From: Synergistaceae bacterium | GTDB lineage: Bacteria; Synergistota; Synergistia; Synergistales; Aminobacteriaceae | Length of the DNA stretch: 64,000 nucleotides | Assembly (NCBI GenBank): GCA_017540085.1 | Contig: JAFYBQ010000028.1 | Location: forward strand, 62,001 to 126,000 | Direction: 5' to 3' | Shown here: piece after piece, positions 3 to 21,552 of the stretch | Layout of the letters: each line of letters starts with the position of its first letter | How positions within the stretch are numbered: the first letter of the stretch is position 1 | The notes under the pieces: generated by a model | Database searches by the model: none | What the model saw: the letters and a program-made list of their open reading frames with translations, nothing else | Told to the model about the DNA's origin: nothing | Translations under genes and position numbers: made by a program

Positions 3-878
3 GGAACACGCCCAGCAGGAATCTACACAGCCGGGACTGCTCAAAGATTCGTCAACATGGAAGGCTACATGCCGGGAAAACGTGCGGTGATTCTCGGTTC
101 GGGCGACATAGGGCTAATCATGGCGCGGCGAATGATCTGGGAGGGCGCAACGGTTGAAGGTGTCTACGAGGTAATGTCATGGCCGGGCGGATTAAGGCGC
201 AACATTGCTCAGTGCCTCGACGATTACGGGATACCATTCCATTTGCGGACGACTGTAACACGCATTCACGGCAACGACAGGCTAGAGGGCGTTACGGTCG
301 CAGAAGTTGACGATCATATGACACCGATAGCCGGGACAGAACGCTACGTAGAGTGTGATACGCTCCTGCTTGCCATCGGGCTTATACCTGAGAACGAGTT
401 ATCCCGCATGGCCGGAGTCGAAATTCACCCCGTAACGGGCGGGCCTGTCGTGAATGATTTATTGCAGACGAGTAACCCCGCAATATTCGCCGCCGGAAAT
501 GTCGTTATCGTCTATGATCTTGTCGACAACGTAAGCGACGAGGGACTAATAGCCGGAGCGAACGCCGCAAAATTCGCCGCCGGGAAAATTTCACCGTCAG
601 CAAGAATCCCGGTCAAAGGCGGGGAAAATGTCAGGCTATATTCTCCGCAAATTGTTACGGGCGAAACTGACGCAACAATCTTCATGCGCGTAACTCATCC
701 CATAGAGGAAGCGTGCAGGGTCTTTGCTGTCTGTGATAACGGGGCGGAATTATATTCGCAGAGACTGAGATATGCCCGACCCGGCGAAATGAACGAGGTT
801 AGAATCAATGCGGAAAAATTGCGCGGAGCAGGAAAAGTTTCAGGCATAACGATAGATATACAGGCGGTGAAAAAATGA
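3..878 (+). CDS. NAD(P)/FAD-dependent oxidoreductase, 3' part
   Basis: The frame is open from the left edge; the first internal ATG is at 57, but the codons before it (reading ...AGIYTAGTAQRFVN) continue the protein, so the start lies outside the window. A dinucleotide-binding Rossmann motif (VILGSGDIGLIMARR) sits just after that ATG, and a C-terminal FAD-binding stretch ends in IFAAGN. This matches the pyridine nucleotide-disulphide oxidoreductase superfamily. The stop overlaps the DUF1667 start (ATGA), so the two are co-translated. In Firmicutes and Synergistota this pair usually follows an anaerobic glycerol-3-phosphate dehydrogenase-like flavoprotein. An electron-transfer role beside such an enzyme is inferred from that arrangement; the substrate cannot be read here. 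Confidence 0.85.
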   Translation, partial: GTRPAGIYTAGTAQRFVNMEGYMPGKRAVILGSGDIGLIMARRMIWEGATVEGVYEVMSWPGGLRRNIAQCLDDYGIPFHLRTTVTRIHGNDRLEGVTVAEVDDHMTPIAGTERYVECDTLLLAIGLIPENELSRMAGVEIHPVTGGPVVNDLLQTSNPAIFAAGNVVIVYDLVDNVSDEGLIAGANAAKFAAGKISPSARIPVKGGENVRLYSPQIVTGETDATIFMRVTHPIEEACRVFAVCDNGAELYSQRLRYARPGEMNEVRINAEKLRGAGKVSGITIDIQAVKK

Positions 879-1252
879 GCAGTGAGAGAAAATTTATCTG
901 CGTTTCATGCCCTTTAGGGTGCGGCTTAACCGTAACGCTTGATGATTCGGGCGAGGCCGTGAAAGTTGAGGGCAACACTTGCCCAAGGGGTGAGAGTTAC
1001 GCCCGCTCGGAAGTGAAAGATCCCCGGCGCGTTTTCGCGTCAACCGTGAGAGTCAGCGGAGGAAAGCTCCCTGTATGCCCCGTAAGAAGCAAAACTCCCG
1101 CTCCAAGGGGAAAACTTTTCGACATCGCCAGGGCTGTGGCAGGTCTGAACGTTGAAGCTCCCGTGAAAATCGGACAGGTATTAATTCACAATGTCTGCGG
1201 GACTGATGTCGATATTGTAGCAAGCAGAGATTTAGAGGCCGCAAAATTCTGA
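875..1252 (+). CDS. DUF1667 cysteine-rich protein
   Basis: A 125-residue protein of the DUF1667 family. The N terminus has a CVSCPLGC motif, followed by NTCPRG and CPVRS, so it carries several cysteines able to hold an iron-sulfur centre or other metal. The family is repeatedly found as the last gene of a glycerol-3-phosphate dehydrogenase-like / pyridine-nucleotide oxidoreductase operon, and here its ATG overlaps the stop of such an oxidoreductase. A role as small electron-transfer partner is inferred, not proven. The length is typical. A strong terminator follows, so this ends the operon. Confidence 0.85.
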   Translation: MSSERKFICVSCPLGCGLTVTLDDSGEAVKVEGNTCPRGESYARSEVKDPRRVFASTVRVSGGKLPVCPVRSKTPAPRGKLFDIARAVAGLNVEAPVKIGQVLIHNVCGTDVDIVASRDLEAAKF

Positions 1253-1283
1253 ATGAACGAGAAGTAATCCCGCAAAGAAAAAA

Positions 1284-1320
1284 CCGGCAGACCCCCTCGC
1301 GAGACCTGCCGGAAAATTTT
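1284..1320. terminator. Bidirectional terminator between convergent genes
   Basis: A 7-bp inverted repeat (CCGGCAG at 1284-1290, CTGCCGG at 1306-1312) is flanked by an A-run on the left and AAAATTTTT on the right. It lies between the DUF1667 gene and the convergent peptidase gene, so it can serve both. Confidence 0.75.
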
Positions 1321-1325
1321 TCCCC

Positions 1326-3209
1326 CTACCTTGAGCCTAAATATTTTCGGAAGAATGCTTCAAGCTCCCTGTAGAAATCAAATCTGTTCTCCTCGTTGTG
1401 AAAGCCGTAGCCCTCGTTGTCTTTCACCATGTATACGACTTCTTTGCCCGTCTTCCTCACAGCCTCGACAATCTGATCTGACTCGGCCTTGTTGACTCTT
1501 GGGTCATTAGCACCCTGCGCCACAAAAAGCGGTATCCTTATATTTTCCGCGTGGAAAACCGGCGACACTTCCCGCAGTAATTCTTTGTCGGCTGAAGGAT
1601 CCCCTATCATTTCGTGCTCCATCTCAATAAACGGCTTCCAGTACGGCGGAATACTCTCAAGAAGCGTGAAGAGGTTCGACGGCCCTACATAGCTCACCGC
1701 ACAGGCATATAGATACGGCGTGAATGTTGCCCCCGCAAGCGCGCTGTAACCCCCGTAGCTGCACCCGTAAATAGCCAGCCTCGAACGGTCTGCGATGCCC
1801 TCGTTCACCGCCCACTGCACACCGTCTGTAACGTCTTCCTGCATTTTTCGCCCCCACTGCTTGAAGCCGGCCTGCCAGAATGATTTACCGTAGCCCGTTG
1901 ACCCCCGGAAATTCACCTGAAGCACAGCGATTCCCCTGTTGGCGAGAAATTGTGCCTCCGAGTCAAATCCCCATGTGTCGCGCCCGCTCGGCCCTCCGTG
2001 CGGAATCACTACAAGCGGAAGATTTTTCGCCTCAACACCTGCAGGCAGAGTAATATATCCGTGTATCGTGAGGCCGTCCCGCGCCGTGAAAGTTATTGCC
2101 TTCATCGGGGACATATGCTCAGGCTTAATCCACGGGGAAAGGTCAGAAAGTTTCATCACCGAATTGTCCCGGCGGTCAAAAAGATAATACGCTCCGCGAG
2201 TCCTGTCGCTGTATGTCCTGACAATATATCGCTGTTCATCGTCATCACAGTCAACAGCAGCCGCTTCAAGTCCCGGAAAAAATTCGTCAAGAGTCTTCTG
2301 CAACTCTTCCCGCTCAGTGTCGAAAAATTTATAGTGCCTCCTGTCTGTCGTGTAGGTTACGCCCGTTATGATTTTTCGCTTCTTTGAGTGCATTATCCCG
2401 CCTGCGTCAACTTCATCATGTGAAAATATAAGGTCAAGAGTTTTCCCCGTCTCAGGATCATATGTATATATTGCGGCTTTGTCGGTGCTGAGATTCGAGA
2501 CTACATACATCAGTTTGTTGTCATAGGCGAAAAGTGCGGGCGAAAATGTTTCCTTGAAGTTAAGCGTCATAAGCTCGCGAAATTCCTGCGACTCGTCCGT
2601 GCGGTATAACAATGTCTCGTTCACACCGTCAGTGCGGGCGGCGACTCTGAGTTTTCCGTCATGATCTGTCATCCATCCGGTGATGTTTCCGGGATTTTTT
2701 GCGAGTAGCTCAAGCTCTCCCGTCATAATGTTACAGCGGTAAACGTCAAAAACTTCCGGGTTGTCCCTGTTCATGCCAATCAGCATGTGAATGGGATCGT
2801 CTTCAAGATCGTCAAGCACTCCCGCTTTCACCTTGTCGAACGGCGTTAAGTCTCTCGGCTCTCTTCCGTCAATGTCTGTGATATAGAGATGGTAATTTTC
2901 ATCCCCGCCCGTGTCCTGCGCGAACACTATTTTTCCGTTTCCCTTCCAGAAAAATCCGGCTATGTCGCGTTCTGTGGCTGACGTGATTCGCTTCTCTGTC
3001 CCTGTCGAAATCTCACGGACATAGACATTCATACGATGCTGCCACGGACGCGCAAAGGCTAACCATTTTCCGTCAGGCGAAATCGAGAAGGCAGAATTTT
3101 CCGGGTTCCTGAAGAAATCTTCCATCGGCAAAAGGGGAGGCACCGCGGCGAAAGCGCAGACGGCCGGCATTGCGACAAACAAAGCTGCGAGGACAAATAA
3201 TATTCTCAT
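1326..3209 (-). CDS. Exported S9 family peptidase (prolyl oligopeptidase / acylaminoacyl peptidase type)
   Basis: A 627-residue serine peptidase. The first ~22 residues form a signal peptide (MRILFVLAALFVAMPAVCAFA), so it is probably periplasmic. The middle region (SISPDGKWLAFARP and similar segments) has the WD40-like/beta-propeller repeats of family S9, and the C-terminal alpha/beta hydrolase domain holds the catalytic triad: Ser484 in GCSYGGY, Asp569 in GANDPRV and His604 in GFHNEEN. These match the S9C acylaminoacyl-peptidase group, which removes residues or dipeptides from short peptides. A peptide-scavenging role would suit an amino-acid-fermenting anaerobe, but that is inference. It is transcribed alone and convergent with the upstream operon. 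Confidence 0.9.
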   Translation of the reverse strand: MRILFVLAALFVAMPAVCAFAAVPPLLPMEDFFRNPENSAFSISPDGKWLAFARPWQHRMNVYVREISTGTEKRITSATERDIAGFFWKGNGKIVFAQDTGGDENYHLYITDIDGREPRDLTPFDKVKAGVLDDLEDDPIHMLIGMNRDNPEVFDVYRCNIMTGELELLAKNPGNITGWMTDHDGKLRVAARTDGVNETLLYRTDESQEFRELMTLNFKETFSPALFAYDNKLMYVVSNLSTDKAAIYTYDPETGKTLDLIFSHDEVDAGGIMHSKKRKIITGVTYTTDRRHYKFFDTEREELQKTLDEFFPGLEAAAVDCDDDEQRYIVRTYSDRTRGAYYLFDRRDNSVMKLSDLSPWIKPEHMSPMKAITFTARDGLTIHGYITLPAGVEAKNLPLVVIPHGGPSGRDTWGFDSEAQFLANRGIAVLQVNFRGSTGYGKSFWQAGFKQWGRKMQEDVTDGVQWAVNEGIADRSRLAIYGCSYGGYSALAGATFTPYLYACAVSYVGPSNLFTLLESIPPYWKPFIEMEHEMIGDPSADKELLREVSPVFHAENIRIPLFVAQGANDPRVNKAESDQIVEAVRKTGKEVVYMVKDNEGYGFHNEENRFDFYRELEAFFRKYLGSR

Positions 3210-3327
3210 GGATAAGGATCTCCCTTCAATGGAATTTTCGCGATTGATTGTATCATGGCCGCGTAAAACATTCCTGCTTTGTATTAGAATATTTCACGGT
3301 AATGAATTTCATGAGGAGGGGAAAAAT

Positions 3328-4512
3328 TTGCAGGATAATATTTCTGTTTACCCCGTAAAAGTTTCAAGTGCTGAAGATGTCATTAAAATTTGCGCGAAAA
3401 TCGGAACAGACTCCGGCGCATTATCGTACTTAGTCCCAAAAGCAAATATCATTCACATTTACGCCGAGAGAGTCGACTACAGAGCGGCGAATTTCGTCAA
3501 GCAGGAAATGTTATCACGCGGGGGAGATTGTGCGGTCGGGAAACATGTCATTGACGGCAAGACAGATTACAGCGACATTTTCATAATGGGTACGGAAAAG
3601 CAGATAACGAGTCTCACGGAGAAAATGACGGCCATGAATATATGGGGGATTCCTGCACTGCGTGAGAAAATCGCGGGCATAATGAGGAACATAAAGCGGG
3701 GAAAATGGGAGATAATCTCGCCGAATGGACGCAAAATAATTCTTGGCCGGAAGACGCGGTTAATGGCCATTCTGAATCTCACGCCGGACTCGTTTCACCC
3801 TGAGAGCCGGACGGATGAGCGCGGAATAATTGAGCGTGCCGGGAAATTTCTTGACGATGGAGCGTACATTCTTGATGTCGGAGCGGAGTCGACAAGGCCG
3901 GGGGCGAGTCCAGTCTCAGAATCTGACGAGGCCGGAAGATTACTGCCTGCCCTGCGAGCTTTGCGGCGCGAGTTTCCAGAGGCGTTAATCTCTGTCGACA
4001 CATACAAGGCTGAAATTGCGCGTCTCTCTGCGGGTGAAGGTGCTGACATCATCAACGACATAAGCGGCTTCAGTTTCGACTCGGACATGGCCGGAACAAT
4101 AGCCGGACTCGGTATCCCCTATGTATTGTCGCACATAACCGGGACTCCGTCAGACATGGCCGGATATGAGTCGCACGAAAATATTTTAGGCGAGATGGAT
4201 AAATATTTTGCGGAAAAACTTTCGGAGCTTGAATCCGCCGGGGTCAAACGGGAAAACGTGATACTTGACCCGGGATTAGGTTTCGGGAAATCTGCCGGGG
4301 ATAATTTCACCGTGCTGAAGAATATTGAGAGCCTTGCGGGATTCGGGCTTCCTGTGATGATTGGGCATTCGCGGAAGAGATTCACGGGGGGGCTTTCGGG
4401 GACTCTCGGTGTTACGGCGATGATGGCGGGAAGGGTGAGCCTCCTGCGGGTTCATGATGTTGCGGGGAATATGGAGGCTCTGAGAGTCGCGGAGGGGATT
4501 AACGGCGCGTGA
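3328..4512 (+). CDS. folP: Dihydropteroate synthase with N-terminal extension
   Basis: Makes 7,8-dihydropteroate from p-aminobenzoate and the pterin diphosphate in folate synthesis. The C-terminal ~265 residues carry all DHPS signatures: AILNLTPDSF, DVGAESTRPGA, ISVDTYKAEIA, INDISG, DPGLGFGKS and MIGHSRKRF. The frame is open from an ATG at 3208, but a strong site (GAGGAGGG, 3313-3320) stands 7 bases before an in-frame TTG at 3328, which I take as the start (394 residues). About 130 residues precede the DHPS core. Such extended forms occur in other anaerobes; the extension has no motif I recognise. The gene overlaps the convergent GT8 remnant by 14 bases. Confidence 0.9.
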   Translation: MQDNISVYPVKVSSAEDVIKICAKIGTDSGALSYLVPKANIIHIYAERVDYRAANFVKQEMLSRGGDCAVGKHVIDGKTDYSDIFIMGTEKQITSLTEKMTAMNIWGIPALREKIAGIMRNIKRGKWEIISPNGRKIILGRKTRLMAILNLTPDSFHPESRTDERGIIERAGKFLDDGAYILDVGAESTRPGASPVSESDEAGRLLPALRALRREFPEALISVDTYKAEIARLSAGEGADIINDISGFSFDSDMAGTIAGLGIPYVLSHITGTPSDMAGYESHENILGEMDKYFAEKLSELESAGVKRENVILDPGLGFGKSAGDNFTVLKNIESLAGFGLPVMIGHSRKRFTGGLSGTLGVTAMMAGRVSLLRVHDVAGNMEALRVAEGINGA

Positions 4513-5401: not shown

Positions 5402-6295
5402 ATGAAAGGAATCGTACTGGCCGGGGGAAGCGGGACTCGCTTGTACCCTCTGACCCTCGTAACATCAAAGCAATTACTGCCCGTTTACGACAAGCCGATG
5501 ATATATTACCCGGTATCAATCCTAATGCAGGCAAAAATCCGCGACATTCTCATAATCTCAACGCCCGATGATTTGCCCCGTTTCGAGAAACTTTTAGGCA
5601 CTGGCGAAAGATTCGGCGTTAAATTCTCGTACAAGGTTCAGCCATCACCTGACGGACTCGCGCAGGCGTTCATTCTCGGAAAGGACTTTATCGGCCATGA
5701 CACAGCCGCGATGATTCTCGGCGACAATATATTTTCCGGGCAGGGATTGACTCGCCGACTCGCTGAGGCTGTCTCGAACGCCGAATCCGGGAAGGGAGCG
5801 ACAATTTTCGGCTACTATGTCGATGACCCGGAGCGTTTCGGAATCGTAGAGTTTGACTCACACGGCCGGGCAGTGTCCATTGAGGAGAAGCCCGAACATC
5901 CCAAAAGCAATTACGCCGTTACGGGGCTGTATTTCTATGACAACAGGGTGATAGAGTTTGCCGAATCCCTGAAGCCCTCAAAGCGCGGTGAACTCGAAAT
6001 TACCGACCTCAACAGGATATATCTTGAGCGCGGAGAGCTGAACGTTGAATTACTCGGACAGGGCTTTACGTGGCTTGACACCGGGACTCATGAGAGCCTC
6101 GCGGACGCTACGAATTTCGTCAAGACTCTTGAGACTCACCAGCACAGAAAGATAGCCTGTCTTGAGGAAATCGCCTACCTTAACGGATGGATTACCCGCG
6201 AAAATGTTATGACGGTCGCAAACCAGCTCAGGAAAAATCAGTACGGGCAGTATTTGATTGACGTTATAGAAGGGAAGTATATCGATGCAAGATAA
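5402..6295 (+). CDS. rmlA: Glucose-1-phosphate thymidylyltransferase
   Basis: First enzyme of dTDP-L-rhamnose synthesis: dTTP + glucose-1-phosphate to dTDP-glucose + diphosphate. The N terminus has the nucleotidyltransferase loop GGSGTRLYP (residues 8-16) followed by [16 protein letters not shown]. Further family motifs are ILGDNIFSG (Mg-binding Asp), [20 protein letters not shown] and [12 protein letters not shown]. At 297 residues it is full length. It is cytoplasmic and opens a four-gene operon. Its last 11 bases overlap rmlD. The enzyme family is usually feedback-inhibited by dTDP-rhamnose. Confidence 0.97.
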
Positions 6296-7190
6296 AATTT
6301 TCATCACGGGGGCAAACGGCCAGTTAGGGCGCGACCTTGTTCACGAATTAACCGGGCGCGGAATTTCCTGCGTTGCCTCAGACATTCAGCCGGAATTTTC
6401 CGGGGATGAGGAATGCGAATATATCCCCCTCGACATCACGGACTCGGACGCTGTTGACTTGGCCATGAGGAAGTCAGGAGTCTCAAGAGTCATACATTGC
6501 GCCGCGTGGACTGCTGTCGACTCTGCCGAGGATGATGCGAACCGGGCAAAAGTTTACGCCGTCAACGTAATCGGCACTGAGAACATCGCAAAAGCCTGCG
6601 CGGAACACAATCTCATCATGACATACATCAGCACGGACTATGTTTTTGACGGAACCGGGACAGCCCCCCGAAAGCCTGATGACGAATCATTTTCCCCGCT
6701 GAATTATTACGGGTACACGAAATTGCAGGGAGAGTTAGCGGTGAAGAAGTACCTGCAAAAATTCTTCATTGTCCGAATCGCGTGGGTTTTCGGGAAAAAC
6801 GGAAATAATTTCGTCCGAACAATGCTGAAACTTTCACGGACTCATGACACGCTCCGAGTCGTGAATGATCAGATAGGGACTCCTACATACACTCCCGATT
6901 TGGCGCGGCTTCTCGCTGACATTAGCATGACGGATAAATTTGGCATATACCACGCAACGAACGAGGGCGGCTATATTAGCTGGTATGATTTCGCGTGTGA
7001 GATATTCCGGCAGTCGGGCGTTAATGTGAATGTGATTCCCGTAACGACTGCTGAATATGGGCTGTCAAAAGCAAAGAGGCCGTATAATTCCCGTCTCGAC
7101 AAAAGCAAGCTGGTATCATCAGGATTTGAGCCGCTCCCGGACTGGCGGGACGCATTGAGGAGGTATCTGTCAGAATATGAGTCAGATTAG
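6285..7190 (+). CDS. rmlD: dTDP-4-dehydrorhamnose reductase
   Basis: Last step of the rhamnose pathway: NAD(P)H-dependent reduction of dTDP-4-dehydro-L-rhamnose. The cofactor motif [10 protein letters not shown] is at residues 9-18. [10 protein letters not shown] and the catalytic [10 protein letters not shown] (YxxxK) follow, with [18 protein letters not shown] and [14 protein letters not shown] typical of RmlD. It has 301 residues, the usual length. It overlaps rmlA by 11 bases and rmlC by 14, so the operon is strongly coupled. Confidence 0.97.
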
Positions 7191-7734
7191 CGTTGAACAT
7201 AACGCCGGAGGGATTGAGGGACTCTGCGTTATCACACAGACGGTACACGGGGACAAGCGCGGGTATTTCACAGAGACATACAACCGCAGGGACATGGCCG
7301 AAGCCGGGCTTGATTACGATTTTGTGCAGGACAACCAGAGCAGCAGCACAAAGGGAGTCCTCCGGGGGCTTCATTTCCAGATACATTATCCGCAGACGAA
7401 ATTAGTACGGGTAATACGGGGGGCAGTGTATGATGTAGCTGTTGACGTTCGCAGGGGAAGCGCGACATTCGGGAAGTATTACGGAATAATTCTGACGGAG
7501 GACAATCACAGGCAGTTTTTGATTCCCAAGGGATTCGCTCATGGCTTCCTTGTTATTTCTGACTTTGCGGAGTTCTGCTACAAGTGCGATGACTACTGGC
7601 ACCCAAACGATGAGGGCGGGATAATATATTCTGACCCCGATGTAAATATCGACTGGCCTAAAGTTGACGCGCCATTGAACATTATCGAGAGGGACAGCAA
7701 ATTACCGACATTAAGGGAGGCTGTATTGCCGTGA
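7177..7734 (+). CDS. rmlC: dTDP-4-dehydrorhamnose 3,5-epimerase
   Basis: Cupin-fold epimerase that converts dTDP-4-dehydro-6-deoxyglucose to dTDP-4-dehydrorhamnose. Recognised by QDNQSSSTKGVLRGLHFQ with the catalytic His, VRVIRGAVYDVAVDVRRGS, and FLIPKGFAHGFLV. Length is 185 residues, normal for the family. It starts inside the end of rmlD; its TGA overlaps the GTG start of rmlB. The order A-D-C-B differs from the enterobacterial B-D-A-C. Confidence 0.97.
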   Translation: MSQISVEHNAGGIEGLCVITQTVHGDKRGYFTETYNRRDMAEAGLDYDFVQDNQSSSTKGVLRGLHFQIHYPQTKLVRVIRGAVYDVAVDVRRGSATFGKYYGIILTEDNHRQFLIPKGFAHGFLVISDFAEFCYKCDDYWHPNDEGGIIYSDPDVNIDWPKVDAPLNIIERDSKLPTLREAVLP

Positions 7735-8714
7735 AAATAATCGTAACCGGGGGAGCGGGCTTTATCGGAAGCAATTTCATTTTCCACATGCTGAAGTCTC
7801 ACCCTGAAGACAAAATAATCTGTATCGACAAGCTGACATACGCCGGGAATCTCGCTACCCTGAAGGAAGTTATTGCTGAGGGAAAAATATCGTTCTTCCA
7901 CATGGACATCTGCGACCGTGAGAGGGTATACGGCCTGTTTGAGCGGGAGCGGCCCGACATCGTGGTGAATTTCGCGGCGGAATCTCATGTTGACCGCTCA
8001 ATAAATGACCCGGGAATTTTCCTGTTCACAAACACGCTTGGGACAGGGGTACTTCTTGACGCTTGCATGAAGTACGGAATAACGCGCTATCATCAGGTAA
8101 GCACGGATGAGGTTTACGGGGATTTGCCGCTTGACCGCCCTGACCTGTTTTTCACGGAGGACTCGCCGATTCACACATCATCGCCGTATTCAGCCTCCAA
8201 AGCAGGAGCTGATATGTTAGTGCTTGCGTATCACAGGACGTACAATTTGCCCGTGAGTATTTCGCGGTGTTCGAACAATTACGGCCCGTATCATTTCCCG
8301 GAGAAATTAATCCCCCTGATGATAATCAACGCCCTTCATGATAAGCCGCTACCTGTTTACGGAAAAGGGATAAACGTCCGGGACTGGCTATATGTTGAGG
8401 ATCACTGCCGGGCTATAGACATGATAATTCACGACACTGACTCGGAGGGTGAAATCTTCAACATCGGCGGGCATAACGAGATGAGGAATATTGATATTGT
8501 CCGTCTGATATGCGCGGAGCTTGGGAAGCCTGAGAGCCTGATTACGTTTGTGGAGGACAGGAAAGGCCATGACCTGAGATATGCTATTGACCCGACAAAG
8601 ATATACCTGCGGTTAGGGTGGCGGCCTGAGACGAGATTCGCGGATGGGATAAAGAAGACAATACGCTGGTATCTCGACAATGAGTCGTGGTGGCGGCCAT
8701 TGGTGAAGGCTTAA
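7731..8714 (+). CDS. rmlB: dTDP-glucose 4,6-dehydratase
   Basis: Second enzyme of the pathway, an NAD-dependent short-chain dehydrogenase-type dehydratase. The NAD motif GGAGFIGSNF is at residues 6-15. HMDICDR, NFAAESHVDRSI, STDEVYGDL, the catalytic YSASKAGAD (YxxxK) and SNNYGPYHFPEKLIP all match RmlB. It starts with GTG overlapping the rmlC stop (GTGA). At 327 residues it is close to the usual 330-360. It closes the operon and converges with the restriction gene. Confidence 0.97.
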   Translation: MKIIVTGGAGFIGSNFIFHMLKSHPEDKIICIDKLTYAGNLATLKEVIAEGKISFFHMDICDRERVYGLFERERPDIVVNFAAESHVDRSINDPGIFLFTNTLGTGVLLDACMKYGITRYHQVSTDEVYGDLPLDRPDLFFTEDSPIHTSSPYSASKAGADMLVLAYHRTYNLPVSISRCSNNYGPYHFPEKLIPLMIINALHDKPLPVYGKGINVRDWLYVEDHCRAIDMIIHDTDSEGEIFNIGGHNEMRNIDIVRLICAELGKPESLITFVEDRKGHDLRYAIDPTKIYLRLGWRPETRFADGIKKTIRWYLDNESWWRPLVKA

Positions 8715-9580
8715 TGCCTGCGGGGGATTCTGAGGCGGTCTAAAATTTCTGTGAAGTCAGGAATTATCCGGCCATTATCGCGCAGGGTGAGATATTCTGT
8801 TCCGCGTTCTTTGAGCTGTGATTGAGCCTGCCCGCTGAGAGTGTCAGCTATGAATATGTCGGTGTCCCGCGCTATAGTCATGTCTGCGCTCTCAGGATTC
8901 CCCCTGCCCATCAATTTCACTTCAACGCGGTAAACTTTCCCCGTAATGCTTTTGAGGCGGTAATCAGTCTCGCGGTCATACGGGAGACTCTTATTACGCC
9001 TGAAATTTTCCCTGTCAATAAATTCTTCAGGGACTCCTGCGCGCCTGCACAGCTCATCAACTAACGGCTTCTCGACTCTTTTACCGATTGCGCTCCATGC
9101 TCCGCCTATAATTTGAAGTTTTTTCGCAGCCAAAGCATTAATGACTAACAGGCTTTCAGTTAAAGAAAGTTCTACAGTAATGTCATTATGGGTGATTTTA
9201 GTTGATAGTGCAAAATCGTCTTCTGAGTTCTTCTCAATTTCGTTAATCACAGCACTTAAACTCTCAAGATTATTTTTCGATGTGTCTAGCATAATTTTAC
9301 GAGCTGAAGTCCCGTATATATTTGTGATAGTCTTCCTGTTAAGCCCGGCGTAAATTACAGCGTCATCAGGCGAAACATTATCACCGTCAATGAAATGTTC
9401 TATATACCATGCCATATTAATATTTCCGCCGTCAAATTTTGCGTATACGATCTCACGGAAAAATTTTACGAAGAAATCAAAGAATAGCTTATCGATTGCA
9501 TGAACTATAATTTCTCTGTAATCATATCCAGATAATAATCTGCTGACCGTGTTTCTTACCGCTTCTTCCCCGAACGTCAT
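8711..9580 (-). CDS. CfrBI-like type II restriction endonuclease
   Basis: The frame is open from 9889, but the methyltransferase runs in another frame there. The first ATG giving family-like sequence is at 9580 (MTFGEEAVRNTVSRLLSGYD), so I predict 289 residues. The text matches what I recall of the CfrBI endonuclease family: GLNRKTITNIY, GGAWSAIGKRVEKPLV, and a PD-(D/E)XK-like site with an Asp in RETDYRL and E-x-K in YRVEVKLMGRGNPESAD. CfrBI cuts CCWWGG; the same specificity here is inference. The frame is intact. It overlaps the original 3' end of its methyltransferase by about 58 bases and converges with rmlB. Confidence 0.75.
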   Translation of the reverse strand: MTFGEEAVRNTVSRLLSGYDYREIIVHAIDKLFFDFFVKFFREIVYAKFDGGNINMAWYIEHFIDGDNVSPDDAVIYAGLNRKTITNIYGTSARKIMLDTSKNNLESLSAVINEIEKNSEDDFALSTKITHNDITVELSLTESLLVINALAAKKLQIIGGAWSAIGKRVEKPLVDELCRRAGVPEEFIDRENFRRNKSLPYDRETDYRLKSITGKVYRVEVKLMGRGNPESADMTIARDTDIFIADTLSGQAQSQLKERGTEYLTLRDNGRIIPDFTEILDRLRIPRRH

Positions 9581-9629
9581 AATATCCCACGCTTTCACTC
9601 TCGATAATATCCGCGTAATCCCCGTTAAT

Positions 9630-10574
9630 CTAACACAGAACAGGAATCCTTGCCATTTTCCGCGCCGCCCTTCCGAATGTCCCCGAACTCGCAAAAGTAT
9701 CCAGCACCGTGTCCCCCTCGAACGAATAATAGCGCAAGACTTTCCGGCATAATTCCTCCGGGAAAACAGCAGGGTGATTCTTGTCATATTTCGGCGCAAT
9801 GTACCAGCAGTTTGTTGTGTCGATTGGCTCATCGTCGTGCCTGTCAGACCCAGAAGGCTCCGGCTTGACCCATAAAATTTCGTCCACAAAGTAATATCCC
9901 GTCTCCGTCAAAACTCTGTGCAGGTCGTAATGTATCGGGTATCTTATGCTCTCGAACTCGCGCCCGGGACGGCGTGTTATCACTGGCGACACGTTCACGA
10001 TGATAAAGCGTCCGTCCTCAAGCACACGATGACACGCGGAAAATGTTTCGCCCATTTTCGACAGGTATACGGCGTATGGTGAGTAGTCCGAATACTCGCG
10101 GGCGTTGTAATACGGCGGGGACGTGAATATGAGCTGCACCGAATTTTCCGGAAGAGCTTTGAGTGTCTCTGTGTTGTCGCCGATAAGCAGAAGCGGAGAT
10201 GTTATTCTGTTCACGGGGAGGGGCTTTTCTTTTGGCTGACGAAAATTGTAGTACTCGTTCATTTTGCCGATAATCTCATTGTCCCAGAAAGCTATCATCT
10301 CATCACGAAGGCGCGAAAATCTTTCGTCATCCCTGCTCCTGTAAAGGCATGTCCTGAACATCTGATATATTAATTCCATCGGGTTATCCCGGCTGAATGC
10401 TTCCTCCCTCAGAAATGAATATATCCTTGCGCTGTCGTTGTGCCTGCCGATAGATGACACTGCCTCGCGGCTAACGTCAATATTTTCGTCTGACCTGAAT
10501 ATTTCAAGAAGCGTGTCGAAACTTTCAGGCGTTCTCACTTTCGCAAGTGCTTTAACATTTTCGACTGTGTACAT
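9630..10574 (-). CDS. Site-specific DNA methyltransferase (beta class), C-terminally truncated by a stop codon
   Basis: Start is the ATG at 10574, directly after the ABC ATPase stop. Residues 1-~115 look like a HEAT-type helical region. The catalytic motif IV TSPPYYNARE marks an N4-cytosine/N6-adenine amino-methyltransferase of the beta class, and motif I (DTFASSGTFGRAARKM) lies near the C terminus as expected. The frame ends at TAG 9630-9632 after ARIPVLC. Past that TAG the same frame continues as INGDYADIIESESVGYYD to a TGA at 9522, which is the normal end of such enzymes (usually VLCEIN...). The TAG therefore most likely replaces the motif II Glu (GAG), leaving 314 residues. Its endonuclease partner downstream is intact. 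Confidence 0.8.
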   Translation of the reverse strand: MYTVENVKALAKVRTPESFDTLLEIFRSDENIDVSREAVSSIGRHNDSARIYSFLREEAFSRDNPMELIYQMFRTCLYRSRDDERFSRLRDEMIAFWDNEIIGKMNEYYNFRQPKEKPLPVNRITSPLLLIGDNTETLKALPENSVQLIFTSPPYYNAREYSDYSPYAVYLSKMGETFSACHRVLEDGRFIIVNVSPVITRRPGREFESIRYPIHYDLHRVLTETGYYFVDEILWVKPEPSGSDRHDDEPIDTTNCWYIAPKYDKNHPAVFPEELCRKVLRYYSFEGDTVLDTFASSGTFGRAARKMARIPVLC

Positions 10575-10575
10575 T

Positions 10576-11292
10576 TTAGTGCTTGGCCTCGCTGTCAAGC
10601 TCCTCGATTTTCGGGGCGGCCTCGTCCGCAATCAATCTCCCGTCCCTGAATCGTAATACTCTCTCGCTCCATGTCGCTATCTCCGGCTCATGCGTAACAA
10701 GTATCACCGTTATCCCCTGCCTGTGAAGCTCCGTAAAGATATTCATGATCTCGACAGTTGTCTTTGTGTCAAGATTCCCGGTAGGCTCATCGGCTAATAT
10801 AATCGGTGCTTCTCCGACTATTGCGCGGGCTATTGCGACTCTCTGCTGTTGTCCGCCTGACATTTGCGCGGGGCGGTGATGGAGTCTTTTTCCGAGTCCA
10901 ACTTTTTCGAGGGCATTAACGGCGGCTTTCCTTCTTTCTGACGAGCTGACTCCGCGATAAAGCAGGGGCAATTCTACATTCTCTACAGCGTCAACTTTCG
11001 GCAGGAGGTTGAAGCCCTGAAACACAAATCCCAGTTTCTGATTCCGAATGTCGGCAAGCTCGGCCTTAGTCTGGTCTTTCACATCTACCCCGTCAAGCTC
11101 GTATTTCCCGCTCGTAGGAACGTCAAGACACCCTAATATATTCATCATCGTAGACTTCCCCGAACCTGAAGGCCCCATCACGCAGACAAATTCCCCCCGC
11201 TCAATCTTGAAGCTCACTCCGTCAAGAGCGCGTAATTCTATGTCGCCCGTAACATAAATTTTCGTGAGGTCGCGCACTTCTATTATGCTCAT
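10576..11292 (-). CDS. ABC transporter ATP-binding protein, MacB/LolD type
   Basis: A 238-residue cytoplasmic ATPase. Walker A is GPSGSGKST, the signature is [16 protein letters not shown] and Walker B runs into [11 protein letters not shown], with the H-loop VTHEP. The DEPTGNLD and [21 protein letters not shown] text places it in the MacB/LolD/FtsE-like group that works with FtsX-like permeases. It starts with ATG overlapping the stop of the MacA-like adaptor gene. No permease gene follows: the methyltransferase starts 2 bases after its stop. Either the permease is elsewhere or it was replaced by the restriction cassette. Confidence 0.9.
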
Positions 11293-16652: not shown

Positions 16653-16773
16653 CTGTCAAGAATGGACTGACTCAGGGACTCTCCTCTGTTGTCGCTGATT
16701 TTGATTAAGCCCGCAAATATTTTCCCCGCCCATTAATCTATAATAGCTTCCATCAGACAAGGGAGTGAAATTT

Positions 16774-19700
16774 TTGACAGACGAAGAGAAACAGCAGGTT
16801 CAGAATTTAATCAGCGCAAGGACGAAATTACTGACCGAGAAAACAGCAAGGCAGGATGACGAGATAAAGACACTCAGCGCACATTTAATTTCATTGCACA
16901 GCACGCTAGAGTCCCGCGAGGCCGAAATAGAATCCCTGAACGAAAAATTGTCGCAGGCTCAGGAGGAATTATCACGCGCAAAGGAACAGAACAGACAGCT
17001 CGCCGCCCTCATTCAGTCCGAACAGACAAAGCCCGAAAAATCACAGCCGATTCCTGAAAAGCCTAACTATCTTTTGTCGCTGTTACGTCAGCATTTCGGG
17101 TACGACAATTTCAGGCCGGGACAGGAGGAAATCATTGACGCACTTTTGTCCGGGCGCGATGTCTTCTGCTCAATGCCCGAAAATTACGGCAGGAGCATTT
17201 GTTACCGCCTCCCCGCGCTGTTAATGCCCGGCGTTACTCTCGCTGTTACTCCCGATGACCCGCCCGACTCCCTCGCCGACTCTCACTCCGAAATATTATC
17301 GCCCTCCCTGACTCCCGCAAAGAGGCGCGAAATCCTCCGCAAAGTCCGTAACGGTACGTGCAAGATACTTTATTCGACCGTTCAGCAGTTATCAGAGTCC
17401 GACTCCCTGTCAGCCCTGAAGAAGTCAGAAATTTCTATGGCCGCAATCATTTCACGCTGGGGGACTCCTCACGGCCTCGCCTCATGGCCGGATATTGTCT
17501 CATCAATAACATCACGAAAAATCACCGCCGGAATTTTCGCCGACACTACAAGCCCCGCGCTTAGGCAGGAATTGTTGAAGCTCGCCGGGCTTAATTCTCC
17601 GCTGAAAGTCATAACGGGCTTCAGACGGGATAATTCAGAGATACGAATCATACGCGCCGAAAATAAGCAGTCAGCACTGAACGAGATATTAGCGGGGAAA
17701 GCAGGAGTCCCCGGTGTGATTTACTGCTCGACTCCTGAGACGGCCTACAAGTTAGGGGAAATGCTCCGGGATTTTGGCGGGCTGAATGACTCCCTGCTCA
17801 TCATGCCAATGTTGCTTTACCGCGAAATTTCCCGCAGAGATATACGCTTCACCGTTCATTACGACATGCCAGCGTCCCCCGGCGATTTCTCACAGCATAT
17901 CAATATCACCGGGAACAATCCCAAGTCCGAGTCAATAATTCTTGTCTCACGCAATGACATCCGCAACACTGACCGCAATATGATTCCATTCTGCAAGAGC
18001 GAATCCCCCGGAGATTATCTGCTGTCGTATCTCGGAGTCGATGAGAGCATTACCCCGTCAACAGAGACAGAAAGCGCAGAGTCCGCAAAAATTTCGCCTG
18101 ATGATGTCTCTGATTTCGACTTTGGGAACGCAAACGAGTCCCAGCGGGAAGCCATCACAGCGACAAACGGCCCCCTTCTGATTATCGCCGGGCCTGGGAC
18201 GGGAAAAACTTTCACCCTTGTGCAGCGCGTTGTGTTTCTGATACAGAAAAAGCGGGTCAGCCCGGAAAATATCATGCTCGCGACATTCACCGATAAGGCC
18301 GCAAATGAGATTGTTACGCGTGTTACTCAGGAGCTTTCACGGCGGAATATCACTGCCGACACTGGCGCAATGTACGCAGGGACGTTTCACGCGATATGCG
18401 GGCGAATCCTGAAGGAGTACTCAGACTTCACCGGGAGGCCGAAAAATTTCCGGGTTCTTGATGATTTCGGACACGCCTACATGATTATGCAGAACATGAA
18501 GAAGTTTGACGGGATTCCGGGACTTTCTTCCGCGCTCAAGTCAAAAGGAAGATGGGCAAATTCCCGCGAGCTTAGGGACTGTATCAATACACTGTCGGAA
18601 GAGCTTGCTGACCCTGAAGAATTAATCCGCGACTCAAATCCTGCTGTCAGTGCGTTAGGCCGTGCCATGAAGATTCATGATGACATTCTCCGGGAGTCAA
18701 ACTCTCTGAGCTGGTCGGCGATTCTTGTTGAGACGTATAAACTTCTCCGCGACAATCCCGAAATCCTCGCAGACCTTCAAGCCCGTGTGAAATATGTCAT
18801 GGCTGACGAGTATCAGGACACGAATTATATTCAGGAGCAAATAGCGTTATTGATAGCGGGAGAGTCCCGGAATATTTGCGCGGCGGGCGATGATGATCAG
18901 AGCATATATAGATTCAGGGGGGCGGAAGTCCGCAACATTCTCGAATTTCCGGGGCGTTTCGGGAATGAATGCAGGGTTGTGCGTCTCATGCTCAATTACA
19001 GGTCAAGACCGGGGATAATAGATTTCTTCTCTCAATGGATGACAGACACGGGAAAATTTTTCGCGTGGGAAATTTTTAGGCATGAAAAGAAACTTGAAGC
19101 ATACCGCCCGGCCATGAATAATAATCCTTCCGTGATGAGGCTTGCAGGAATCGCCGACAAAAACGAATGGCACGAGAAAATATTTCACCTGATACAGTCC
19201 CTCAAAGACTCCGGGAAACTCAGCGACTACAGCCAGATAGCATTTCTCTTCCGTTCCGTGAAAAATCCTGATGTCAAAGCCCTGTCGCAATATCTTGAGG
19301 AACACAACATAGGGGTATATTCTCCGCGCTCTGATATGTTCTTTCAGCGGAAAGAGATAATTTTCGCGGTCGGCTGCATCATAGCAATGTTCCCGGATTA
19401 CCTGAAGGGGCTAGAGTCCGGGGCGTTCAACTTCAACGGAGGCGAGCCGGATTATATTGCGTACTACAAAAAGTGCCTGGCCTATGTGAAACGCTACATT
19501 GACCGCCCGCAGTATTCCGCCCTGAAGAAGCATATAATCTCCTGCCGTAATCATCACGCAAAACTCACGGGCTACACGGGCTATACTTTCTCTGATTTGC
19601 TGTATGAGCTTTTCGCGTACCCTCCTTTTGACGCGGCATTGAGCGCGGATATTTCCGGGACAGTGAAAGAACTGCGGCCTGCCCGGAATCTGTCGCGGCT

Positions 19701-20979
19701 CGTTCAGATTCTCCGGCACTATGAGCACAGCTACAACATCAACAACCTTAACGCGAAATATATCGCCAATCAATTCACGATAATGATGAACATATATATG
19801 CGCTTCATGATAGAGGAGGGAGCAGACGAATACGAGGGCGGAGAGTCCCCGGTGCCGCCCGGCCATGTGGCATTCATGACTATACATCAGGCCAAGGGGA
19901 TGGAGTTTCCTGTAGTTTTCGCCGACTCCTTATGGGCATACCCGCAGGAAAATTCCGTGAGCGAGATTATGCGGGACATATCCCGGAAATATTACAGGAG
20001 GCCGGAATTTGAGCCTGAAGACCGCGTAAAGTACTTTGACTTCTGGCGGCTGTACTATGTTGCGTTCACGCGGGCGCAGGATTTGCTGATATTGACGTGC
20101 TGCGAGGACAGGAATACGCCGAGCCGATATTTTGAGGACGCATACAACCGGCTTGATGACGCTGACGAATCTTTGCGGATTCCCGACGCTGAAATAAGCC
20201 CGGCGAAAGTTTCGGGGCTGAAGAACACGTATTCATTCACGGGCGATATTTTGACGTACGAGAAATGCCCGACGCAGTACAAATTTTTCCGTGAGCTTGA
20301 GTTCATGCCGGGGCGGTCTGAATCAACATTCACGGGGACATTGATACATGCGGTGCTTGAGGACATACACAGGGCGGTGATTAATCATGAGGAAAGCAGG
20401 ATAACGCCGGAAAATATTTCGTCATGGTTTGCGGATGAGTACGAACATTTGTCGCGGCGTGAGCAGGCATACCTGAGTCAGTCGGCAAGAAACACCGCGC
20501 TGAATCAGATTATGCGCTACGTTCAGAGGCAGGGCGATGACTGGTCAGCGGTGAGAAAAGCGGAGTATGATGTGAACACTGTCCGGGATGATTATATTCT
20601 TGGGGGGAAAATTGACCTGATTTCAGTCCGGGACGGTGAGACGGAAATCACAGACTTCAAGTCAGGCGCGAAACCTAATGTCAACATCAGCGCAGACCGC
20701 GAACGCCTCGAAACATACCGCCGTCAGATTTTCGCGTATTCATTCATGGCCGGGAACGCAACGGGACTCAATGCTGGCCGACTCAGGCTTTACTTCACAG
20801 GAGAGGAGAATGGAAGCCCGGAAATCATATACCAGTATGACCCGGACGAGGCCGCAGAAATCATGAAGGGATTTGACGAGACCGTAAGCAAAATTATCCG
20901 CAAGGACTTCAATCACAAAGCTGACGACTCCGAAAATTGCCGGGACTGTGTTTTCAGGCACTACTGCGGGAGGGAATGA
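16774..20979 (+). CDS. Fusion protein: coiled coil + inactive RecQ-like domain + UvrD-type helicase + iron-sulfur PD-(D/E)XK nuclease
   Basis: Predicted start TTG 16774 after AAGGGAG (1,401 residues); the GTG at 16765 lies inside the RBS. Residues ~5-85 are a coiled coil. Residues ~90-420 are RecQ-like (LRQHFGYDNFRPGQEEIIDA), but the Walker A is PENYGRS (135-141, Arg140 where Lys is required) and no DEAH box is found where one would be expected (AAIISRWGTPHG). Residues ~455-1120 are a full UvrD/PcrA helicase: GPGTGKT with Lys478, MADEYQDTN, GDDDQSIYRFRGA, TIHQAKGMEFP and YVAFTRAQDLL. The C terminus is a RecB/AddB/Cas4-like nuclease with Asp1281, Asp1294 and Lys1296 (DFKSG) and four cysteines (1165, 1389, 1392, 1398) placed as in AddB [4Fe-4S] nucleases. 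Likely double-strand end processing or defence; inferred. Confidence 0.85.
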   Translation: MTDEEKQQVQNLISARTKLLTEKTARQDDEIKTLSAHLISLHSTLESREAEIESLNEKLSQAQEELSRAKEQNRQLAALIQSEQTKPEKSQPIPEKPNYLLSLLRQHFGYDNFRPGQEEIIDALLSGRDVFCSMPENYGRSICYRLPALLMPGVTLAVTPDDPPDSLADSHSEILSPSLTPAKRREILRKVRNGTCKILYSTVQQLSESDSLSALKKSEISMAAIISRWGTPHGLASWPDIVSSITSRKITAGIFADTTSPALRQELLKLAGLNSPLKVITGFRRDNSEIRIIRAENKQSALNEILAGKAGVPGVIYCSTPETAYKLGEMLRDFGGLNDSLLIMPMLLYREISRRDIRFTVHYDMPASPGDFSQHINITGNNPKSESIILVSRNDIRNTDRNMIPFCKSESPGDYLLSYLGVDESITPSTETESAESAKISPDDVSDFDFGNANESQREAITATNGPLLIIAGPGTGKTFTLVQRVVFLIQKKRVSPENIMLATFTDKAANEIVTRVTQELSRRNITADTGAMYAGTFHAICGRILKEYSDFTGRPKNFRVLDDFGHAYMIMQNMKKFDGIPGLSSALKSKGRWANSRELRDCINTLSEELADPEELIRDSNPAVSALGRAMKIHDDILRESNSLSWSAILVETYKLLRDNPEILADLQARVKYVMADEYQDTNYIQEQIALLIAGESRNICAAGDDDQSIYRFRGAEVRNILEFPGRFGNECRVVRLMLNYRSRPGIIDFFSQWMTDTGKFFAWEIFRHEKKLEAYRPAMNNNPSVMRLAGIADKNEWHEKIFHLIQSLKDSGKLSDYSQIAFLFRSVKNPDVKALSQYLEEHNIGVYSPRSDMFFQRKEIIFAVGCIIAMFPDYLKGLESGAFNFNGGEPDYIAYYKKCLAYVKRYIDRPQYSALKKHIISCRNHHAKLTGYTGYTFSDLLYELFAYPPFDAALSADISGTVKELRPARNLSRLVQILRHYEHSYNINNLNAKYIANQFTIMMNIYMRFMIEEGADEYEGGESPVPPGHVAFMTIHQAKGMEFPVVFADSLWAYPQENSVSEIMRDISRKYYRRPEFEPEDRVKYFDFWRLYYVAFTRAQDLLILTCCEDRNTPSRYFEDAYNRLDDADESLRIPDAEISPAKVSGLKNTYSFTGDILTYEKCPTQYKFFRELEFMPGRSESTFTGTLIHAVLEDIHRAVINHEESRITPENISSWFADEYEHLSRREQAYLSQSARNTALNQIMRYVQRQGDDWSAVRKAEYDVNTVRDDYILGGKIDLISVRDGETEITDFKSGAKPNVNISADRERLETYRRQIFAYSFMAGNATGLNAGRLRLYFTGEENGSPEIIYQYDPDEAAEIMKGFDETVSKIIRKDFNHKADDSENCRDCVFRHYCGRE

Positions 20980-20982
20980 CGG

Positions 20983-21552
20983 CTATTCTTCCTTCCTGAA
21001 ATTTAGTGTGAAACTGTATTCCGCGCTGTAGCCTGCATACATTGCGGGCGTAACTCCCTGATAGTTTACCCGTATGATTTTGTCTGATGAGACTGTTATG
21101 TTCATGAGCGTTTTTGCGCTGTCCCCGTCTACGTTGCAGCGCCATTTGTCTTTTGCCTGATGGATCATTCTCCCGGCCTCATTCGAGAAAGTGAGTCCAA
21201 GATTCTGAATGCCTAGGTTAATATGCTCGTCGCCGCTCGTGTAGCTTGTGTGCCATTCCTGAGCACTGCCCACTGTAGCATAAGCAACGCTCCCGGACAT
21301 GTCTACAGAGTCAAACGTGAGCCGCGCTGAACTGAGCCTGAAGCCGAAATTCCCCGCGCTGAACTGAGATGTGCTGTCAATTGCTGACCATGCCCCGCTG
21401 AGAACTTCCTGCGTCCTGTAAGTGTCAGGAATGTTCAGTGTATCCTGATTCCCGCTGTTTGTGCTGTCGAGACTCCCCCCTCCGCACCCCGAAAGAACCG
21501 CGACAAATATCCCAATCACAGCAATCATGCTCCACATCCTGAATTTACGCAT
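20983..21552 (-). CDS. Predicted lipoprotein of unknown function
   Basis: A 189-residue protein with a basic N terminus, a hydrophobic stretch and a lipobox VLSGC (Cys23), followed by GGGSLDSTNSG, a typical flexible linker of an exported lipoprotein. The body is rich in Ser, Thr and beta-prone segments and has no family I recognise. It converges with the helicase-nuclease gene with only 3 bases between them and precedes the tRNA cluster. Function unknown. Confidence 0.75.
   Translation of the reverse strand: MRKFRMWSMIAVIGIFVAVLSGCGGGSLDSTNSGNQDTLNIPDTYRTQEVLSGAWSAIDSTSQFSAGNFGFRLSSARLTFDSVDMSGSVAYATVGSAQEWHTSYTSGDEHINLGIQNLGLTFSNEAGRMIHQAKDKWRCNVDGDSAKTLMNITVSSDKIIRVNYQGVTPAMYAGYSAEYSFTLNFRKEE

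What the first reader, a model, noticed from the sequence alone, without database searches (positions are those of the whole stretch)
16774..20979. Single-chain pseudo-RecQ / UvrD helicase / iron-sulfur nuclease
The sequence shows a RecQ-like domain whose Walker A is PENYGRS and which lacks a recognisable DEAH box, fused to a UvrD helicase with all motifs and a C-terminal PD-(D/E)XK nuclease with the four-Cys pattern of AddB. UvrD-nuclease fusions are known from AddA/RecB. A catalytically dead RecQ module in front is not something I know as a described architecture. It could be a DNA-recognition or auto-regulatory arm of an end-processing or anti-phage machine. The gene sits alone beside an IS fragment and a terminator with no upstream gene.
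Basis: partly seen in the sequence, partly recalled or inferred. Interest (0 to 1): 0.72.

Follow-up and report, generated by a model that had tools for sequence, protein, structure and literature searches.

The report
Dead-RecQ helicase-nuclease fusion, genus-specific
A gut bacterial genus carries a DNA-cutting motor protein whose front part is a RecQ helicase that has lost its engine but is still kept by selection; its nearest relatives are helicase-nucleases encoded in mobile restriction-modification-like gene clusters, so it looks like a domesticated DNA-processing enzyme with a built-in 'dead helicase' arm.

Summary
One gene (TTG 16774 to 20979, +) encodes a four-part chain: predicted coiled coil, degenerate RecQ core, intact UvrD motor, intact PD-(D/E)XK nuclease with AddB-type four-Cys pattern. 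AlphaFold2 plus Foldseek confirm a RecQ fold in residues about 92-430. Every orthologue covering the region lacks the RecQ DEAH box and motif VI is unrecognisable; the Walker-A lysine was lost at least six times. Yet dN/dS of the RecQ part (about 0.12-0.25) is near that of the nuclease, so it is a maintained pseudo-helicase. The architecture occurs in 30 of 43 genomes of one Synergistaceae genus, in none of 145 other genomes of the phylum, and arose once (100/100). About 36 relatives of the UvrD-nuclease half elsewhere lack RecQ; most with readable neighbours are gene 1 of a mobile UvrD-nuclease/methyltransferase/Res-helicase module. The fused gene instead sits in housekeeping context (often directly after rmlB) and coexists with AddA-like and AddB-like proteins. 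RecQ-UvrD fusions with active RecQ and no nuclease exist elsewhere, so only the dead-RecQ/nuclease combination is new. Likely role (inferred): DNA end or foreign-DNA processing, the dead RecQ binding DNA or partners as dead helicase domains of AddB/RecC do.

The parts
16774..20979 (+). whole gene, TTG start, 1401 aa (1404 aa if the GTG at 16765 is used; residue numbers elsewhere in this report follow the GTG count)
16759..16765 (+). ribosome-binding site AAGGGAG, 8 nt before TTG 16774
   Evidence: sequence
16774..17040 (+). N-terminal extension: conserved opening (M/L)T-x-EE-x-QQVQN(L/I)I-x-ARTKLL followed by a heptad-rich coiled-coil-like stretch (about residues 4-92)
   Evidence: (weak coiled-coil models only)
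17050..18070 (+). degenerate RecQ core (residues about 96-435): motif 0 kept, Walker A MPENYGRS, DEAH box and motif VI missing, zinc module lost
17176..17199 (+). eroded RecQ motif I MPENYGRS, about residues 137-144
18106..20160 (+). UvrD/PcrA-type SF1 motor (residues about 448-1132), motifs I-VI intact (K481, D681, E682, R1103)
20254..20976 (+). PD-(D/E)XK nuclease (residues 1164-1404): H1195, D1284, D1297-x-K1299; four Cys C1168, C1392, C1395, C1401
16097..16618 (-). IS256/mutator-family transposase fragment upstream, not part of the gene
5402..8714 (+). rmlA, rmlD, rmlC, rmlB genes (named from sequence); in other genomes of the genus the fused gene often starts directly after rmlB

Best explanation
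A chromosomally fixed, single-chain helicase-nuclease. Its motor and nuclease half descends from (or shares a recent ancestor with) the first gene of a mobile UvrD-nuclease/methyltransferase/Res-helicase module. Once, in the ancestor of one Synergistaceae genus or of most of it, that half became fused behind a RecQ core and an N-terminal coiled coil. The RecQ core then lost ATP hydrolysis but kept its fold. The active parts are the UvrD motor (predicted 3'-to-5' translocation on ssDNA) and the Fe-S-type nuclease, which would track along and cut DNA from ends or gaps. The dead RecQ core most likely acts as a non-motor arm that holds ssDNA or a junction, or docks a partner, and so loads or gates the active half, in the way that the dead helicase domains of AddB and RecC do; the coiled coil probably makes it a dimer or tethers it. 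Shown here: the architecture, predicted fold, loss of RecQ catalytic motifs, intact UvrD/nuclease residues, single origin, purifying selection, and chromosomal context. Inferred: translocation, cutting, DNA binding by the dead arm, dimerisation, and the end-processing or foreign-DNA role.
For: RecQ fold: AF2 pLDDT 85.8, pTM 0.80; best PDB matches are RecQ catalytic cores (4tmu E 3.7e-22; 1oyw and BLM TM about 0.74-0.75). Dead: DEAH absent in every orthologue covering the region, motif VI unrecognisable, Walker lysine replaced by R, L, M or S on at least six tree branches. Maintained: RecQ-part dN/dS 0.12-0.25 in 16 pairs, close to the nuclease part (0.11-0.17) and the coil. Motor and nuclease residues intact in nearly all. 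Single origin of the fusion, 100/100 support, beside standalone forms. The basal member G015 still has Helicase_C and RecQ_Zn_bind matches, so the arm was a bona fide RecQ core. Standalone relatives sit in mobile R-M-like modules: 5 of 5 plasmid loci read, 4 of 5 near-full-length viral-contig loci, and most genome loci with readable flanks. Dead helicase domains as DNA readers are established for AddB/RecC (PMC4824097).
Against: No functional data. The RecQ-UvrD model has pTM 0.58, so the position of the RecQ arm is not predicted. The gene is absent from 12 of 43 genomes of the genus (one of these keeps a short fragment), so it is not essential; one lineage (G009/L022) has a damaged motor and nuclease and another (G015/L023) has K-to-R in the nuclease. 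Whether the arm binds DNA, protein or nothing is untested.
Confidence: 0.55

Rival explanations
1. The RecQ part is a decaying relic with no function; only the UvrD-nuclease half works.
For: Catalytic motifs lost; deletions and the lowest identity lie in RecQ domain 2; Walker lysine lost repeatedly.
Against: dN/dS 0.12-0.25, similar to the nuclease; the frame is kept open in 30 genomes; motif 0 and the flanks of motif I are nearly invariant.
Confidence: 0.12
2. It still works as the helicase-nuclease subunit of a restriction-modification-like defence system, using Mod/Res partners in trans.
For: Standalone relatives are encoded with Mod and Res; G044 has Mod/Res on another contig and the window's own genome has broken Mod/Res pieces on contig C30.
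Against: Only 2 of the 30 genomes with the fused gene have any Res match, and in the window's genome it is fragmented; the fused gene sits in housekeeping context.
Confidence: 0.12
3. It is a genus-specific defence nuclease acting alone against phage or plasmid DNA.
For: Ancestral family is mobile and R-M-like; patchy presence.
Against: Vertical inheritance, recurrent chromosomal position, no PADLOC assignment beyond generic helicase matches.
Confidence: 0.18
4. It is an ordinary member of the known RecQ-UvrD fusion proteins of about 1,700 aa.
For: Same order of domains, RecQ then UvrD.
Against: Those have active RecQ, a spacer of about 400-450 aa, no PD-(D/E)XK match, and match the window protein at only 22-37% in pieces, whereas the window's UvrD-nuclease is 47% identical over 959 aa to the R-M-associated standalone form.
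Confidence: 0.03

Closest known systems
Standalone UvrD-PD-(D/E)XK 'ATP-dependent DNA helicase' (about 955 aa) of mobile UvrD-nuclease/methyltransferase/Res(TnsA-like) modules, e.g. Enterococcus faecium pDY28-poxtA WP_002330457
   Same: homologous over the whole UvrD and nuclease halves (33-49% identity for the full-length relatives listed); four Cys invariant in the two standalone relatives aligned
   Different: no coiled coil, no RecQ; encoded next to Mod and Res; mobile
AddAB (AddB N-terminal dead helicase, Fe-S nuclease) and RecBCD (RecC)
   Same: active UvrD-type motor combined with a catalytically dead helicase domain and a PD-(D/E)XK nuclease; the Cys pattern as in AddB
   Different: in AddB/RecC the dead domain is SF1 (UvrD-like) and on a separate subunit; here it is SF2 (RecQ) and in the same chain; AddA and an AddB-like protein are present besides it
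Large RecQ-UvrD fusion helicases (about 1,700 aa; Cereibacter, Scytonema, Sulfitobacter plasmids)
   Same: RecQ and UvrD in one chain
   Different: RecQ catalytic motifs intact, long spacer, no PD-(D/E)XK nuclease; not closely related
RecQ plus DNA2 end resection (BLM/WRN-DNA2) in eukaryotes
   Same: RecQ fold working with an SF1 helicase carrying a nuclease
   Different: separate proteins and an active RecQ there; analogy only (PMC5030094, abstract seen)
UvrD/PcrA/Rep helicases
   Same: motor half best matched by PcrA/UvrD structures
   Different: carries a nuclease and a RecQ arm

Membership tests
RecQ helicase family | RecQ fold of the two RecA-like domains | tested here: met
   AF2 model and Foldseek
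RecQ helicase family | Walker A GGGKS and DEAH box | tested here: not met
   MPENYGRS; DEAH missing in all orthologues that cover it
RecQ helicase family | motif VI QxxGRxGR and RecQ zinc domain | tested here: not met
   zinc domain survives only in G015
RecQ helicase family | ATP-dependent 3'-5' unwinding by this domain | not testable with these tools
   predicted absent from the motifs
UvrD-like SF1A helicase-nuclease | complete UvrD motifs I-VI | tested here: met
UvrD-like SF1A helicase-nuclease | PD-(D/E)XK catalytic residues with four-Cys cluster pattern | tested here: met
   the Fe-S cluster itself not shown
R-M-associated UvrD-nuclease (UvrD-nuclease/Mod/Res module) | sequence homology and tree placement | tested here: met
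R-M-associated UvrD-nuclease (UvrD-nuclease/Mod/Res module) | encoded next to Mod and Res | tested here: not met
AddAB | two-subunit complex with AddA and AddB family matches | tested here: not met
   separate AddA and AddB-like proteins exist in the genome
AddAB | Chi-type recognition by the dead helicase domain | not testable with these tools
   needs biochemistry
RecQ-UvrD fusions of about 1,700 aa | active RecQ, long spacer, no nuclease | tested here: not met

The most novel reading that the evidence does not exclude
A new class of end-processing helicase-nuclease in which an SF2 pseudo-helicase (dead RecQ), fused in cis to an SF1 motor-nuclease, reads DNA (sequence, structure or junction) and switches the nuclease: an independent invention of the AddB/RecC principle from a different helicase superfamily, derived from a mobile R-M-like gene.
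Probability: 0.3. Interest if true: 0.75.

Novelty: new variant of a known kind. Interest (0 to 1): 0.52.

Why it matters
Catalytically dead helicase domains that became DNA readers are known from AddB and RecC, both SF1. This would be a case in which an SF2 (RecQ) helicase was turned into a non-motor arm of a helicase-nuclease, with divergent orthologues, an identifiable ancestor and a basal lineage that still has more of RecQ, so the path from enzyme to pseudo-enzyme can be followed and tested. It also points to a widespread mobile UvrD-nuclease/methyltransferase/Res module whose Res part has no match in the 2023 PADLOC library.

Tried and rejected
Active RecQ: rejected on motifs. Junk N-terminus or pseudogene: rejected on dN/dS and conservation. 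Isolated gene beside an IS: local to the window; other genomes show rmlB directly upstream. Replacement for AddAB: rejected, an AddA-like and an AddB-like protein are present. Hidden remnant where the gene is missing: no hit near rmlB in 7 genomes, within the about 1.5 kb flanks held. Viral copies of the RecQ arm: none found. RecQ as an operon partner of the standalone forms: none among the neighbours examined. RecQ-UvrD interface from AF2: not interpretable (pTM 0.58). Literature searches for RecQ-UvrD fusions, dead RecQ or the three-gene module gave nothing on point in the held library; subscription papers are not in it.
Full report
Check of the observation. The window holds one uninterrupted frame at 16765-20979 on the + strand. 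The likely start is TTG 16774, because AAGGGAG lies 8 nt upstream and two orthologues have ATG at that codon; residue numbers below count from the GTG at 16765. Pfam finds UvrD-helicase at 457-731, UvrD_C, and PDDEXK_1 at 1164-1401, and only a short DEAD remnant at 117-154. NCBIfam RecQ matches 106-335 with E 1.2e-37, far below its family cut-off. PDB sequence searches give PcrA/UvrD for the middle and RecQ catalytic cores for the N-terminal part.

The RecQ part is a real RecQ fold and it is dead. AlphaFold2 on residues 92-450 with 26 orthologues gives mean pLDDT 85.8 and pTM 0.80; the best Foldseek matches in the PDB are RecQ catalytic cores and BLM/RECQ5/RECQ1. Against an active standalone RecQ of the same genus, motif 0 (F-x-x-GQ-x) is kept. 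Motif I is MPENYGRS here and MPxxYGKS in many orthologues. The DEAH box is missing as a gap in all orthologues that cover it, part of motif Ia is deleted, and motif VI (QEAGRAGRDG) is gone. The Walker lysine is K in 17 of 26 rows and R, L, M or S in the rest. Laid on the tree this needs at least six separate losses.

The dead module is under selection. Pairwise Nei-Gojobori dN/dS is about 0.12-0.25 for the RecQ part, 0.08-0.16 for UvrD and 0.11-0.17 for the nuclease; for example L015/L059 (RecQ dS 0.26): 0.14, 0.12 and 0.13. Some pairs have dS near or above 1, so single values are rough, but no pair suggests neutrality.

The motor and nuclease are intact. K481, D681 and R1103 of UvrD are present in every row covering them and E682 in all but two (D in L022 and L023); nuclease H1195, D1284, D/E1297, K1299 and C1168, C1392, C1395, C1401 are kept in all covering rows except L022 (damaged nuclease) and L023 (K to R). 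The four Cys are also invariant in the two standalone relatives in that family alignment. An Fe-S cluster is inferred from the pattern, not shown.

Distribution. Within the genus (43 genomes; L071, a goat-gut 'Synergistaceae bacterium' MAG, is a member) 30 carry the fused gene (in a few it is split by contig ends), one (G055) has only a standalone UvrD-nuclease, and 12 have neither, one of these (G019) with a short fragment. Of 188 genomes of the phylum only one outside the genus (G133) has this UvrD-nuclease, and it is standalone. A 46-row IQ-TREE tree puts all fused forms on one side of a single branch with 100/100 support. The most divergent fused form, G015/L023, still matches Pfam Helicase_C and RecQ_Zn_bind, which shows that the arm began as a complete RecQ core.

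Where the UvrD-nuclease half comes from. Standalone relatives are followed by an N6/N4 methyltransferase (Mod) and an 870-aa ResIII/TnsA-like helicase-nuclease (Res) in 5 of 5 plasmid loci read, in G133 and G055, in L072-L076 and L081, and in 4 of 5 near-full-length viral-contig loci. A more divergent group (L077, L078, L160 and others) has different neighbours. PADLOC 2023 gives the methyltransferase R-M matches, the UvrD half only generic GajB/DRT matches, and the Res nothing. Res is found in only 3 of 43 genomes of the genus: G055 with the intact trio, G044, and broken pieces in the window's own genome on contig C30.

Genomic setting. In 8 of the 18 neighbourhoods read the fused gene starts directly after rmlB (within about 750 bp), and a lipoprotein-like gene and/or the Kdo-transferase gene often follow. 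Others lie beside recD2, or near recJ and relA/spoT. In the window rmlB ends at 8714, and a CfrBI-like R-M pair, efflux genes and an IS256 piece lie between. Genomes without the gene show no remnant in the about 1.5 kb held on each side of rmlB. The genome also has AddA (contig C6) and an AddB-like protein with a C-x2-C-x5-C tail (contig C14); AddA-size hits are present in genomes with and without the fusion. A strong standalone RecQ match was seen in few genomes of the genus and not in the window's own.

Comparison with known things. RecQ-UvrD single-chain proteins exist: about 1,700 aa, annotated 'RecQ family ATP-dependent DNA helicase', with intact RecQ and UvrD motifs, a spacer of about 400-450 aa and no PD-(D/E)XK match. 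They are not close relatives of the window protein. AddB and RecC supply the best functional precedent: 'inactivated helicase domains' that recognise Chi (PMC4824097). There the dead domain is SF1 and on a partner subunit; here it is SF2 and fused.

Mechanism, with status. Shown by sequence and model: domain order, RecQ fold, lack of RecQ ATPase motifs, intact UvrD and nuclease residues, single origin, purifying selection. Inferred from families: 3'-5' translocation by UvrD, Fe-S nuclease. Inferred only: that the dead arm binds ssDNA or a junction or a partner and controls loading or cutting; that the coiled coil dimerises; that the task is end processing or foreign-DNA degradation. The two-domain AF2 model (pTM 0.58) does not fix how the arm packs.

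Limits. MAG assemblies; sampled genomes; no experiment; literature limited to open-licence papers. I put 0.85 on 'selected pseudo-RecQ arm on an active helicase-nuclease' and about 0.55 on the fuller explanation with a DNA- or partner-binding role.

Noticed in passing
L151-L155, L061, L062, L072-L076, L081, L156-L159: Conserved mobile three-gene module UvrD-nuclease / N6-N4 methyltransferase / Res helicase with TnsA-like nuclease on plasmids, chromosomes and viral contigs of several phyla; the Res has no PADLOC 2023 match.
   Followed up: partly
L061:7988-12313: In G133 the module is followed by a second methyltransferase, a HerA-type ATPase and a 463-aa protein without Pfam match (possibly a NurA-like partner).
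   Followed up: no
window 8711-10631 (-): CfrBI-type restriction endonuclease and N6/N4 methyltransferase lie directly after rmlB, with overlapping reading frames.
   Followed up: partly
L186 (G000:C30:1-12000) 629-3658 and L189: The window's genome has broken Mod/Res pieces near argG; in G045 the fused gene itself lies near argG, so this may be an insertion hotspot or an old linkage.
   Followed up: partly
L209:3146-8266, L210:3212-8218, L211:3164-8266: RecQ-UvrD fusion helicases of about 1,700 aa with intact RecQ and UvrD motifs, on plasmids of Alphaproteobacteria and Cyanobacteria; my literature searches found no description.
   Followed up: partly
G047:C2:5263-6384 and G047:C10:62490-63611: RecQ-like frames of 1137 aa, each with an internal TAG and identical scores, in two contigs of one genome (possible duplicated element).
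   Followed up: no
L022 (G009:C126): In one lineage the fused protein has lost parts of UvrD motifs and of the nuclease, so the gene appears to be decaying there.
   Followed up: no
L205:4357-7290 and L188:34-3591: AddB-like (977 aa, C-x2-C-x5-C, no NCBIfam match) and AddA-like (1185 aa) genes lie on different contigs, and the AddB-like protein has no match near AddA in three relatives checked.
   Followed up: partly
window 20983-21552 (-): Fast-evolving lipoprotein-like gene convergent with the fused gene, conserved in position in the genus (25-61% identity).
   Followed up: no
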